A DNA stretch of 64,000 bases, taken from Methanosarcina horonobensis HB-1 = JCM 15518. GTDB lineage: Archaea > Halobacteriota > Methanosarcinia > Methanosarcinales > Methanosarcinaceae. Position 1 is the stretch's first letter. Each line of letters starts with the position of its first letter. The stretch is taken from assembly GCF_000970285.1 (NCBI RefSeq), contig NZ_CP009516.1, positions 3,947,036 through 4,011,035 on the forward strand. The letters run 5' to 3'. This document shows positions 39,250 to 43,889 of this stretch, one piece after another. The notes below the pieces were generated by a model, which was not told the origin of the DNA, did not search any database, and saw only the letters and a program-made list of their open reading frames with translations. The translations under genes were made by a program, and so were the position numbers.

Positions 39250-39729
39250 TTATTCCTGCTGCTTTCCTTTTTTAGGGCAACAGTAATCATTCTCAATAAA
39301 TCTCTTTCCTTTTCCATCGCCGCCCAGTCGGAAAATTAGATTGGAACTACAATTCGGACAGCTTGTGGGGCGGTACTGATTGGACTTTGCTTCCCACACA
39401 TGATCGCATTCTTTGCAGAGAAAACTGACCTTGCATTCACCAGTATTAACGTATTCTCCTCCAGAAATCTCAATCGCTTTTCCGTTAACGAGAGCATCAG
39501 CCACCTTCTGTCTTGCATTTTGGAGGTCGTTCCAGAAAGTTTTCCTGGATACCCCCATTCTGTCAGCGGCCTCGCTCTGCTCTATTTGAAGAAGGTCGCA
39601 AAGACGAATAGCCTCAAGCTCTTCTATGGATAGGTTGGTAATTTCCAGACAGCAAAGAGGGATTTCTCTGGGCTTGTAATAGGTGGCCTTTGGAAAACAA
39701 GATACCCTGCGCTTAACTTTATTGACCAT
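39250..39729 (-). CDS. DUF134 family putative DNA-binding protein
   Basis: 159 residues. The N-terminal 90 residues match DUF134: FPKATYYKPREIPL, LSIEELEAIRLCDLLQ and an HTH-like QSEAADRMGVSRKTFWNDL. A C-terminal zinc-ribbon follows (CKECDHVW, then CPNC), with a basic tail and a final CC. It probably binds DNA, but its target is unknown. A diverged copy of part of its 3' end occurs just upstream at about 39831-39889. Confidence 0.83.
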   Translation of the reverse strand: MVNKVKRRVSCFPKATYYKPREIPLCCLEITNLSIEELEAIRLCDLLQIEQSEAADRMGVSRKTFWNDLQNARQKVADALVNGKAIEISGGEYVNTGECKVSFLCKECDHVWEAKSNQYRPTSCPNCSSNLIFRLGGDGKGKRFIENDYCCPKKGKQQE

Positions 39730-39830
39730 CTAATTAACTAATGCAACACGTAATAAATATCTATCGATCGATATATATTACTTAAAGCGTTTAAAGTATT
39801 GACCTTAATATCGTCAATCTTCCATTGCCG

Positions 39831-39889
39831 AGTCTGAAAATTAGATTGGAACAACAGTTCGGACAACTTTTGGGACGATACTTGGAGGT
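39831..39889. repeat. Duplicated fragment of the DUF134 gene
   Basis: About 60 bases (GAGTCTGAAAATTAGATTGG onward) match 39330-39385 inside the DUF134 gene, at roughly four bases in five, including the TTCGGACA and CTTTTGGGACG steps. It is outside any gene and seems to be a stray partial copy. Confidence 0.6.
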
Positions 39890-39921: not shown

Positions 39922-40573
39922 CTTTTAGGATTCTTTACTCCATTTAAATCAATCGTCAGTCAAAATACACAAAAGAGATGTTATATAAATAACTAACGCT
40001 GCAGTAATTTAACTATTAATAAATTAATAAGTTCGAGTTCCATAGTTAGGATTTTATACGGCAAATAAAAAAATCAATACCAATAGGTGTATAACTGTAT
40101 AAAATAGGATTAGAATTATGATATTTACGATATTTACATAACAGCTTTGTACATATGCCCATCAGTTCTGTAGCTATTTTCTGTCGTTCACATATCATTT
40201 AACATAAAAGTTCTGTTAATCACTGATACTTTTGTTTTATTTCTTATTCTAATAGCTCCGTGTTCTTTTCTTAGGAAAAATAGGCACATGATGCCGTTTT
40301 CCATGATTCGTCAGGAGTCAACAATCTATAAAAGTCCATGTAGGATTTATAAAACGGATTTTTTTATTTTTATACATAAACAGAACAAAAGTGTAAATTA
40401 TATATAGTACGTCGCTTATGTGTAATTTAAGAGTCTGTCCGAAAAGTGCTGTTAGCTATTGTAACTTCTACAATCAACGATCATAAATGAACGGATTCCG
40501 GATAATAAACACTAATTGTCCAATTGTAAATCTTACAACATGCATAGAACTTTTCGGATAGTCTCTAAGATCT
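39922..40573. repeat. Upstream copy of a ~650-bp tandem duplication
   Basis: Starts at CTTTTAGGATTCTTTACTCC and is followed directly by a second copy at 40574-41222. The edges and middle blocks (ACAAAAGAGATG, CACATGATGCCGTTTT, CAGAACAAAAGTGTAAATTA) match well, other parts are diverged. The last ~135 bases are almost identical. No open gene is present in it. Confidence 0.85.
40438..40558. mobile_element. 121-bp inverted-repeat element, copy 1 (MITE-like)
   Basis: Ends are TCCGAAAAGT and ACTTTTCGGA, perfect 10-bp terminal inverted repeats that extend to 16 bp with two mismatches (AGTCTG.../...TAGTCT). Inside are the hairpins ATTGTA-ACTTC-TACAAT and TTGTAA-ATC-TTACAA. It encodes nothing. It has the features of a miniature inverted-repeat element, but a structured regulatory RNA or DNA site is an alternative. 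Confidence 0.55.
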
Positions 40574-41035
40574 CTTTTAGGATTCTTTACTCTACTTAAC
40601 TAAACCGACAGTCAAAATGCACAAAAGAGATGTAATATAAATAATTAACGCCTTAATATTTAATTATGAGTAAATTAAAATCTCTGAATCCATTTTCAGG
40701 ATTCTGTATTTTTTAAGTACAAAATCAACAGTAATAAACCCCTAACTGTATAAAATACAATTATAACTAGGAAGTCTATTTAATAGTTATATATCATACG
40801 TCCCTTAGTCCTCTGGCTATTTCTGCCTTTTACACCTGATTTAACGTAAAAGCTCTGCTAATCACTGGTAATCTTGTTTTGCCCTTACTCGAATAATTTC
40901 GTGTTCTTTTCTTATGAAAAATTGACACATGATGCCGTTTTTTTAGATTCGTCACGAGTCAACAACCTGTAAGAGATAATACAGAACTTATACAGGTGAA
41001 TCATTTATTTTTATATTTAAACAGAACAAAAGTGT

Positions 41036-41048
41036 AAATTATTTATAA
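41036..41048 (+). promoter_or_regulatory. Candidate TATA box of the CODH/ACS operon
   Basis: AAATTATTTATAA would place transcription start near 41072 and give a leader of about 400 nt. A long leader of similar size is known for cdh operons of Methanosarcina. A matching AAATTATATATAG occurs in the upstream copy near 40394-40406. Another AT-rich candidate is near 41009-41022, so the exact site is inference. Confidence 0.45.
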
Positions 41049-41079
41049 CACGTCGCTAATGTGTAATTTAGGAGTATAA

Positions 41080-41200
41080 TCCGAAAAGTGCTGTTGGCTA
41101 TTGTAACTTCTACAATCAACGATCATAAATGAACGGATTCCGGATAATAAACACTAATTGTCCAATTGTAAAATTTACAACATGAATAGAACTTTTCGGA
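41080..41200. mobile_element. 121-bp inverted-repeat element, copy 2 (MITE-like)
   Basis: The same length and ends as the copy at 40438-40558 (TCCGAAAAGT and ACTTTTCGGA), 642 bases downstream of it. It would lie at the very beginning of the cdh leader RNA if the TATA box at 41036-41048 is used, where its two internal hairpins could fold. Confidence 0.55.
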
Positions 41201-41222
41201 TAGTCTCTAAGATCTCTTTTAT

Positions 41223-41471
41223 TTTTCTGAGATCACAACGTTTACTAGTATAGGACTTACCCACTTGATGTTTAAATAAAAGCAGTGAACTCCCAACTCT
41301 TTAAAAATTCAAGTTTTAACTGCTTGATTTACTGTACTTAGTTTTGTAGTGTAAGTGTGTAAATTCTATAAAAAGTTAAAAAACGATCTCTAAAAATGTC
41401 ATTTAGATAGCTGGAACTTTCAAGAATCGTCTGATAAATGACTTTAAGCGTATTTAGGAGGTAAAGCTGAA
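41223..41471 (+). promoter_or_regulatory. Distal part of the cdhA leader
   Basis: About 250 bp of non-coding sequence between the duplicated element and cdhA. It ends in a strong ribosome-binding site, TTAGGAGGT (about 41455-41463). CAAGCAGTTAAAACTTG-type complementary words (near 41310-41330) could form a hairpin. Confidence 0.5.
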
Positions 41472-43889
41472 ATGAGCAAATTAACTACTGGGAGTTTTTC
41501 TATAGAAGATCTTGAATCCGTTCAGATCACTATCAATAATATTGTAGGGGCAGCAAAGGAGGCTGCTGAAGAAAAAGCAAAAGAGTTAGGCCCGATGGGT
41601 CCCACAGCTCTGGCAGGCATAGCATCCTACCGAAGCTGGAATCTGCTTCTTCTTGACCGCTACGAGCCTGTTCTGACCCCTATGTGTGACCAGTGCTGCT
41701 ACTGTACCTACGGACCATGTGACCTTTCCGGGAACAAGAGAGGTGCCTGCGGAATTGACATGGCCGGCCAAACAGGAAGGGAATTCTTCCTCCGTGTAAT
41801 TACAGGTACTGCCTGCCACGCTGCCCACGGCCGTCACCTGCTTGACCATGTAATAGAAGTCTTTGGTGAAGATCTCCCCCTCAACCTTGGAGAATCAAAT
41901 GTCCTGACCCCTAACGTCACAATCTGCACCGGGCTCAGTCCAAAGACCCTCGGAGAATGCAGGGCTCCAATGGAGTATGTTGAAGAACAGCTCACCCAGC
42001 TGCTTGCAACTATCCACGCAGGCCAGGAAAGCGCAGAGATTGACTACGACTCAAAGTCTTTATTCAGCGGCAGTCTAGACCATGTTGGTATGGAAATCTC
42101 CGATATCGCCCAGGTATCAGCATATGACTTCCCGAAAGCTGACCCCGAAGCCCCGCTCATTGAAATCGGTATGGGATCCATTGACAAGTCCAAGCCTCTT
42201 ATAGTTGCAATCGGGCACAACGTAGCCGGTGTAACCTACATCATGGACTACATGGAAGAAAACAACCTGACCGACAAGATGGAAATTGCAGGGCTTTGCT
42301 GTACCGCATTCGACATGACAAGGTACAAGGAAGCTGACAGGAGAGCTCCATATGCAAAGATCGTAGGGTCACTGGCTAAGGAACTGAAGGTAATCCGCTC
42401 CGGAATGCCTGATGTCATTGTTGTAGACGAACAGTGTGTCCGTGGTGATGTCTTATCAGAGTCCCAGAAACTCAAGATCCCAGTGATCGCTTCCAACGAA
42501 AAGATCATGATGGGTCTGCCAGACCGCACAGACGCAGATGTGGATTCAATAGTCGAGGAGCTCAAATCCGGAGCAATTCCGGGTTGTGTAATGCTTGACT
42601 ATGACAAACTTGGAGAACTCGTCCCGAAGATTGCCCAGACAATGGCTCCAATCCGCGATGCAGAAGGCATCACAGCAATTCCGAGTGATGAGGAATTCAA
42701 GGCATACGTCGAAAAGTGTGCCAAGTGTGGAGAATGCTTGCTGGCATGTCCAGAAGAGCTCGACATCCCCGAAGCCCTGGAATCCGCAGCCAAGGGAAGC
42801 TACGAGTACCTTGAAGCTATTCACGATGTCTGTATCGGATGCCGCCGCTGCGAACAGGTCTGTAAGAAGGAAATCCCAATCCTGAACGTCATTGAGAAAG
42901 CTGCACAGAAGGCCATCAGCGAAGAGAAAGGATGGGTCAGGTCAGGCAGAGGACAGGCAAGCGATGCAGAAATCAGAGCAGAAGGCCTGAACCTCGTTAT
43001 GGGAACTACCCCAGGTATCATCGCAATTATCGGATGCCCGAACTATCCAGCCGGTACCAAAGACGTCTACCTCATTGCCGAAGAGTTCCTGAAGAGAAAC
43101 TATCTCCTCGCAGTAAGCGGGTGTTCCGCAATGGACATCGGTATGTTCAAGGACGAGGATGGCAAGACCCTTTACGAGAGGTTCCCGGGTACATTCTCAG
43201 GAGGCGGACTGCTTAACACCGGTTCCTGTGTATCCAACGCACACATCAGTGGAGCCGCAGAGAAAGTTGCCGGTATCTTCGCAGGCAGAGTCCTTGCAGG
43301 AAACCTGGCAGAAGTTGCAGACTACACACTTAACCGTGTTGGTGCATGCGGACTTGCCTGGGGTGCATACTCACAGAAGGCAGCCTCAATCGGTACCGGA
43401 TGTAACATCTATGGTATCCCTGCAGTGCTCGGCCCGCACAGTTCCAAGTACAGGAGAGCTCTGATTGCCAAGAACTATGACGAGTCCAAGTGGAAAGTGT
43501 TCGATGCCAGAGACGGCTCAGAGATGAACATCCCGCCAGCACCTGAATTCCTCCTGACCACAGCAGAGAGCTGGCAGGAAGCAATCCCGATGATGGCAAA
43601 GGCATGCATCCGCCCATCTGACAACAACATGGGAAGAGCCATAAAGCTGACCCACTGGATGGAGCTTTCAAAGAAGTACCTCGGTGTAGAGCCAGAAGAC
43701 TGGTGGAAGTTCGTCAGGAACGAAGCCGACCTCCCGCTTGCCAAGCGTGAAGAGCTCCTGAAGAGGCTCGAATCAGAGCACGGCTGGGAAATTGACTGGA
43801 AGAGGAAGAAGATCATCTCCGGCCCGAAGATTAAATTCGACGTCTCAGCACAGCCAACTAACCTCAAGAGACTTTGCAAGGGGGCCTGA
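41472..43889 (+). CDS. cdhA: CODH/ACS complex alpha subunit (CO dehydrogenase)
   Basis: 805 residues, the nickel-iron CO dehydrogenase subunit of the acetyl-CoA decarbonylase/synthase complex. The N-terminal cysteines for the D/B clusters are in [23 protein letters not shown] near residue 73-95. Two ferredoxin-like motifs, [12 protein letters not shown] and [11 protein letters not shown], mark the archaeal alpha subunit (about 415-470). C-cluster ligands include GCSAMD, NTGSC and GACGLAWG. It oxidises CO from acetyl-CoA cleavage, passing electrons to ferredoxin. It is the first gene of the operon and has a strong GGAGG site. Confidence 0.97.

What the first reader, a model, noticed from the sequence alone, without database searches (positions are those of the whole stretch)
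39922..41222. Tandem ~650-bp duplication carrying the CODH/ACS promoter and start of its leader
Two adjacent, diverged copies (39922-40573 and 40574-41222) end about 250 bases before cdhA. Each has a TATA-like site (AAATTATATATAG / AAATTATTTATAA) followed by an almost identical ~135-bp block. The cdh operons of Methanosarcina are known to have a long regulated 5' leader. A second promoter/leader copy could give two start sites or act as a decoy or enhancer. The last 135 bases are far better conserved than the rest, which suggests selection on that block.
Basis: partly seen in the sequence, partly recalled or inferred. Interest (0 to 1): 0.62.

Follow-up and report, generated by a model that had tools for sequence, protein, structure and literature searches.

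The report
Transposon-derived antisense RNA linking CODH operons
Upstream of one of two carbon monoxide dehydrogenase/acetyl-CoA synthase operons in this methane-making archaeon sits a duplicated promoter that appears to make a small RNA, descended from a miniature transposon, whose most conserved stretch is exactly complementary to the first 18 nucleotides of the messenger RNA of the cell's other CODH/ACS operon.

Summary
The tandem duplication is real. The well-conserved 135-bp block is a former IS5-type MITE (terminal inverted repeats, TAA target duplication, dispersed relatives, an 870-bp parent IS with the same ends). Its left end lies at the predicted transcription start of an intact TATA promoter. 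The unit occurs in 1-4 tandem copies upstream of one type of cdh operon ("type B") in about half of Methanosarcina genomes.

The main new result: within the block, 18 nt (GGATAATAAACACTAATT) are the exact reverse complement of predicted nucleotides +1 to +18 of the other cdh operon's mRNA ("type A"). The adjacent 11 nt complement codons 15-18 of cdhA. In the window genome the 18-mer occurs nowhere else. In all 17 genomes with an upstream block copy, that copy matches its own type-A mRNA perfectly. This includes three genomes where type A has changed and the block carries the matching change. The copy next to cdhA has drifted in 9 of 16.

I conclude that the upstream copy most likely encodes a trans-acting antisense sRNA coupling the two CODH/ACS isoform operons. 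Transcription and the sign of regulation are untested. The published regulated cdh leader belongs to type A, not this operon. Identity with M. mazei sRNA41 could not be checked.

The parts
39922..40573 (+). upstream (distal) tandem unit: promoter region plus MITE-derived block; proposed sRNA gene
40574..41222 (+). downstream (proximal) tandem unit, continuous with the cdhA leader
40395..40407 (+). TATA-like element of the distal promoter (AAATTATATATAG); predicted start about 40429-40431
   Evidence: conserved in the aligned distal copies
41036..41048 (+). TATA-like element of the proximal promoter (AAATTATTTATAA); predicted start about 41070-41071
40428..40430 (.). left TAA flanking the MITE-derived block (target-site duplication)
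   Evidence: TNA duplications at dispersed copies
40431..40565 (+). distal MITE-derived block, body of the proposed trans-acting sRNA; terminal inverted repeats GAGTCTGTCCGAAAAGT / ACTTTTCGGATAGTCTC
   Evidence: folds at -43.7 kcal/mol (40428-40577), z -6.4
40566..40568 (.). right TAA flanking the block (target-site duplication)
40488..40498 (+). pairing segment 2 (TGAACGGATTC), complementary to codons 15-18 of cdhA
40500..40517 (+). pairing segment 1 (GGATAATAAACACTAATT), exact complement of predicted +1..+18 of the type-A cdh mRNA (G000:C1:877951-877968, outside the window)
41071..41207 (+). proximal MITE-derived block, predicted 5' end of the type-B cdh mRNA leader
41142..41159 (+). segment 1 in the proximal block (intact here, drifted in 9 of 16 genomes)
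41208..41471 (+). rest of the type-B cdhA leader, conserved among block-bearing species, with ribosome-binding site AGGAGGT
41472..43889 (+). cdhA (CODH/ACS alpha subunit), first gene of the type-B cdh operon; segment-2 complement at 41514-41524
39250..39729 (-). DUF134-family gene upstream; partial duplicate at 39827-39882 is a relic of the ancestral larger duplication

Best explanation
An IS5-type MITE inserted at the transcription start of the type-B cdh promoter in an ancestral Methanosarcina, and promoter plus MITE were tandemly amplified. The upstream copy became a gene for a structured antisense RNA of at least ~135 nt. Its invariant 30-nt core, 5'-UGAACGGAUUC-C-GGAUAAUAAACACUAAUU-3', pairs in trans with the mRNA of the cell's other (type-A) cdh operon: the 3' 18 nt with mRNA +1..+18 and the 5' 11 nt with cdhA codons 15-18. 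The two sites are in the right antiparallel order for one sRNA to clamp the mRNA 5' end to the start of the coding region and loop out the ~370-nt leader. The RNA thereby links expression of one CODH/ACS isoform to the other, most likely repressing or attenuating type A when the type-B promoters fire. Shown by sequence: MITE ancestry, promoter conservation, complementarity, its uniqueness, compensatory changes, constraint concentrated in the upstream copy. Inferred: transcription as a separate RNA, the +1 positions, the pairing itself, the bipartite clamp, the sign of the effect.
For: Complementarity: only two complementary runs of 8 nt or more between the block and 519 nt of the own type-A mRNA, 18 nt at +1 and 11 nt at +411, adjacent in the block; none of 2000 dinucleotide shuffles exceeded 14. 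Uniqueness: within 1 mismatch the 18-mer occurs in block-bearing genomes only in block copies (sense) and once antisense in the type-A leader; nothing at 1-2 mismatches elsewhere in the window genome, 3-mismatch hits at control level. Co-variation: three species with changed type-A 5' ends (L045, L034, L051) have exactly the matching change in the upstream block (L040, L046, L068); the chance of all 17 matching under random re-assignment of these haplotypes is 1/4080. Copy asymmetry: upstream copy perfect in 17/17 genomes, proximal in 7/16; in the upstream copy the 18-mer differs 0.9% between species against 15.6% for the rest of the block, in the proximal copy 6.2% against 12.2%. Start-site anchoring: the complementarity begins where the type-A leader is predicted to start, 29 nt after the TATA start and 371 nt before the ATG in G015. 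Site 2: unchanged in 14/15 block-bearing against 7/14 block-lacking genomes (Fisher p 0.014); the one exception also has an altered block. MITE origin. Fold z -6.4 and -5.1, with the loop of segment 1 exposed.
Against: No transcript data were available. The type-A 18-mer is also intact in several species with no block (e.g. G015, G021-G023, G025), so it has another role too and its conservation is not by itself evidence for pairing. Three compensatory cases are few, and a DNA-binding protein reading both sites could in principle produce them. The species are related, so counts of genomes are not counts of independent events. No empty site (type-B promoter without the MITE) was found. RNA-duplex energies over whole molecules were uninformative because the sequences are AT-rich.
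Confidence: 0.7

Rival explanations
1. The 18-mer is a DNA operator: a transcription factor binds it just downstream of the type-A start and within the block, co-regulating both operons.
For: Shared 18-mer near the start of both operons; type A keeps it in species without the block; co-variation could follow a shift in the factor's specificity.
Against: The match starts at the predicted type-A +1 and goes no further upstream; orientation is opposite in all block-bearing genomes; the adjacent 11 nt match a coding region in antiparallel order; the copy nearest cdhA is the one that decays; the motif is not palindromic.
Confidence: 0.13
2. The block acts mainly in cis: a 5'-terminal hairpin of the type-B cdh mRNA that controls its stability or premature termination, with upstream copies as spare promoters (closest to the first reader).
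For: Proximal block begins at the predicted start and ends 244-248 bp before cdhA in many species; strong fold; leader conserved to the ATG. Compatible with the main model as an additional role.
Against: Does not explain complementarity to another operon's mRNA, the matched changes, or why the upstream copy is the more constrained one in the core.
Confidence: 0.09
3. It is the already described M. mazei sRNA41, reported to repress ACDS (CODH/ACS) translation by masking ribosome-binding sites.
For: sRNA41 is an intergenic sRNA acting on ACDS genes, per reviews. That it is about 120 nt and conserved in Methanosarcina is from memory.
Against: Its sequence and location are in a paper not held. The reported mechanism is RBS masking; the block shows no better-than-shuffled pairing to cdh ribosome-binding sites in the window (fractions 0.14-0.84). 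Identity would leave the +1..+18 pairing and MITE origin as additions.
Confidence: 0.15
4. A neutral relic: a decaying MITE caught in a duplication and kept alike by gene conversion.
For: MITE ancestry is clear; block copies in this genome look homogenised; middle copies decay.
Against: Upstream core invariant at 17-fold lower divergence than its surroundings; intact TATA elements in distal copies.
Confidence: 0.03

Closest known systems
Archaeal trans-acting sRNAs of Methanosarcina mazei (sRNA162, sRNA154)
   Same: Intergenic sRNA acting by base-pairing on mRNAs of central metabolism; sRNA162 also pairs with cis- and trans-encoded mRNAs through two domains (PMC3510493).
   Different: Those are reported to mask ribosome-binding sites or stabilise mRNA; here the pairing is with the first 18 nt of the mRNA plus codons 15-18, and the RNA derives from a MITE.
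M. mazei sRNA41
   Same: Acts on CODH/ACS (ACDS) mRNAs (PMC5867862).
   Different: Reported mechanism is RBS masking within polycistronic mRNAs; sequence not available here, identity untested.
Regulated 5' leader of methanosarcinal CODH/ACS (Anderson et al. 2009, J Bacteriol 191:7123; cited in PMC3600222)
   Same: It is the leader whose 5' end the proposed sRNA would bind.
   Different: That leader type (type A) is not homologous to the window's type-B leader except for the last ~30-50 nt. I know the work only through the review, plus the 371-nt figure from memory.
MITE- and IS-derived sRNAs in bacteria (Coxiella QMITE sRNAs, cited in PMC10969869; Salmonella IS200 5'tnpA RNA, PMC12594629)
   Same: Regulatory RNA arising from a mobile element.
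   Different: Bacterial; the Coxiella RNAs have no known targets and the IS200 RNA comes from a transposase transcript. Here an archaeal MITE has a defined, co-varying target.
IS5-family MITEs
   Same: 17-bp terminal inverted repeats, 3-bp TNA duplication, 127-135 bp, parent IS with the same ends.
   Different: The cdh-linked copies are fixed at one locus, amplified with a promoter, and diverged from the mobile copies in the core.

Membership tests
IS5-family MITE (origin of the block) | Terminal inverted repeats shared with an autonomous IS | tested here: met
   17-bp repeats matching GAGCCTATCCGAAAAGT; 870-bp elements with the same ends encode DUF4096/DDE_Tnp_1 transposases
IS5-family MITE (origin of the block) | Target-site duplication of TNA type | tested here: met
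   TAA...TAA around 40431-40565; TAA or TTA on both sides of most dispersed copies
IS5-family MITE (origin of the block) | Dispersed multicopy non-coding element | tested here: met
   Many copies in several Methanosarcina genomes
IS5-family MITE (origin of the block) | Empty site in a relative | tested here: inconclusive
   Type-B promoter was never found without the block
Trans-encoded base-pairing sRNA | Own promoter, non-coding, stable fold | tested here: met
   TATA element conserved in distal copies, fold z -6.4; promoter activity itself not tested
Trans-encoded base-pairing sRNA | Complementarity to a distant mRNA above chance, with co-variation | tested here: met
Trans-encoded base-pairing sRNA | Discrete transcript observed | not testable with these tools
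   no RNA-seq or Northern data available
Trans-encoded base-pairing sRNA | Regulatory effect on the target | not testable with these tools
   needs deletion and compensatory mutants
M. mazei sRNA41 | Same gene location and sequence | not testable with these tools
   paper not held; supplements not available
M. mazei sRNA41 | Pairs with ribosome-binding sites of ACDS genes | tested here: not met
   no better than shuffled block RNA in the window's cdh operon
Published methanosarcinal cdh leader (type A) | Homology of the leader sequence | tested here: not met
   only the last ~30-50 nt match
Rfam RNA family | Match at gathering score | tested here: not met
   no hit in the window

The most novel reading that the evidence does not exclude
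A domesticated MITE encodes an antisense RNA that clamps the first 18 nt of one CODH/ACS isoform's mRNA to its codons 15-18, looping out the regulated ~370-nt leader, so that the promoter of one isoform operon directly controls the other. It would be an RNA-level isoform switch in acetate and CO metabolism, with mRNA 5'-end capture as the mode of action.
Probability: 0.35. Interest if true: 0.88.

Novelty: new variant of a known kind. Interest (0 to 1): 0.76.

Why it matters
CODH/ACS is the central enzyme of methane formation from acetate. Methanosarcina carries two near-identical operons whose division of labour has been puzzling, and a review reports regulation at both transcriptional and post-transcriptional levels (PMC4652020). 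If right, this gives that post-transcriptional layer a specific, testable molecule. It would also be a rare archaeal case of a transposon remnant turned into a regulatory RNA with an identifiable target and co-varying pairing, acting on the very start of the mRNA rather than at the ribosome-binding site. The genes exist in M. acetivorans, which has good genetic tools.

Tried and rejected
Rfam and tRNA scans of the window were empty. Whole-molecule duplex energies between block and leader were no better than shuffled leaders because of AT-richness, so only exact complementary runs were used. Pairing of the block to ribosome-binding sites of the cdh operon: rejected. Strand asymmetry of G-U versus A-C mismatches in the block stems (about 62 to 14 by cell counts) was considered, but dispersed MITEs also lean the same way (35 to 16), so it is not used as evidence. 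RNAalifold covariation inside the block was weak (3 pairs with double changes, covariation term -0.16); the internal fold is mostly inherited MITE palindrome and I do not claim it as selected. A one-mismatch 18-mer in G025 at 890164 lies inside an open reading frame and is treated as chance. A hidden partner RNA in block-lacking species was looked for and not found. The idea that the known regulated leader is the one in the window was rejected.

Full report
Observation. The copies are 75% identical in their upstream part, 91% in the core promoter and 95% in the last block. The block is 40431-40565 and 41071-41207. Each follows a TATA-like element (40395-40407, 41036-41048) with the block's left end at about the expected distance for the transcription start.

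Extent and history. Similar units occur in 14 of 31 Methanosarcina genomes at strict threshold, in one further Methanosarcinaceae genome (G031) and in two MAG bins found through cdhA (L049, L068). They lie upstream of one of the two cdh operon types. The proximal block ends 244-248 bp before cdhA in many species. In most relatives the repeated unit is larger: upstream region, promoter, block, complete leader, first ~35-40 codons of cdhA, and a fragment of the neighbouring DUF134 gene. In this genome the leader and cdhA fragment of the upstream copy are gone, and a DUF134 fragment remains at 39827-39882. Upstream parts of the two copies here (75%) are less alike than the proximal copies of window and relatives (79-83% in four of five), while the blocks show the reverse, which suggests local homogenisation of the block.

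Origin of the block. The block has terminal inverted repeats (GAGTCTGTCCGAAAAGT...ACTTTTCGGATAGTCTC) flanked by TAA on both sides. Dispersed, diverged relatives of 127-135 bp with GAGCCTATCCGAAAAGT ends and TAA/TTA flanks are scattered in the same and related genomes. Elements of ~870 bp with the same ends encode IS5-type transposases (PF13340, PF01609). The block is therefore a former MITE. Its ends have diverged from the mobile consensus and it is fixed at this locus with a promoter.

Two leader types. The leader of the G015 genome (size of M. thermophila TM-1, from memory) is shared with the second cdh operon of the window's own genome and with most block-lacking cdh operons (type A). It resembles the window's leader (type B) only in the last ~30-50 nt. 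So the published regulated leader, described in the review PMC3600222, is type A by homology.

The trans complementarity. The block's most conserved stretch, GGATAATAAACACTAATT, is the exact reverse complement of a sequence that in type A starts 29 nt after the TATA start and 371 nt before the ATG in G015. The published leader length is 371 nt (from memory), so the match should start at +1. Within one mismatch, across block-bearing genomes, the 18-mer is found only in block copies on the sense strand and once on the antisense strand in the type-A leader. In the window genome there is nothing else up to two mismatches. The next 11 nt of the block (TGAACGGATTC, one base away) are exactly complementary to codons 15-18 of cdhA, +411 of the type-A mRNA. 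These are the only complementary runs of 8 nt or more.

Co-variation and asymmetry. Three species have changed type-A 5' ends and exactly matching block variants: KYL-1 (one change), STD2_179 (two changes, three of four block copies) and BL5_bin.6 (one change). In all 17 genomes with an upstream copy, that copy is a perfect complement of its own type A. The proximal copy is perfect in 7 of 16, and several of its departures keep G-U pairing (BL5). Between species the 18-mer differs by 0.9% in the upstream copy against 15.6% for the rest of the block; in the proximal copy the figures are 6.2% and 12.2%. On the mRNA side, segment 2 is unchanged in 14 of 15 block-bearing genomes but only 7 of 14 block-lacking ones, while neighbouring codons vary equally (p 0.014). 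The exception, BM5_bin.6, has a changed block segment as well.

Interpretation. These facts are best explained by RNA-RNA pairing in trans between an RNA from the upstream block and the type-A cdh mRNA. A DNA operator would not be expected to begin at the transcript start, to be adjacent to a match with a coding region in antiparallel order, or to decay in the copy nearest the operon. The two sites could be bound by one RNA at once, joining the mRNA's 5' end to its early coding region. Whether this represses, protects or redirects the leader is not known; I favour repression or attenuation of type A, with low confidence in the sign. Several species keep the type-A 18-mer without having a block, so the sequence has a second role and the RNA probably evolved to match it.

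Limits. No transcript evidence was accessible. The M. mazei sRNA41 paper is not held, so identity with that RNA is open; its reported RBS-masking mechanism is not supported for this block. Names of complete genomes are inferred from their sizes. The genomes are related, so p-values are indicative.

Noticed in passing
window 41472-43889; G014:C1:4742325, 1213099: The window's type-B CdhA (first 383 residues) is 99% identical to the type-A CdhA of G014 but only 85% to that genome's own type-B CdhA, suggesting the coding region was converted from the other operon while the type-B leader was kept.
   Followed up: no
L032:4783-4890, L033:4764-4877, L040:4052-4381: In relatives the upstream copy carries an intact cdhA start (35-47 codons similar to CdhA) running into a DUF134 fragment; possibly a translated mini-ORF.
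   Followed up: partly
L034 and L046 (one contig); L038 and L049 (one contig): In two MAGs the two cdh operons lie next to each other on one contig, and in L046 the block is present in four tandem copies.
   Followed up: no
G000:C1:1826451-1827308 and six similar pairs: An 858-bp IS with related ends (GAGCCTATCCCAAAA) is present in several copies in the window genome; its reading frame is split in the copy read, L092.
   Followed up: partly
L131: In G014 an 872-bp IS and a MITE of the same family sit side by side, separated by 3 bp.
   Followed up: no
L122 (G014:C1:5433150-5436200): The third cdhA of G014 lacks the type-A 5' end; only ~130 nt of the type-A leader remain.
   Followed up: no
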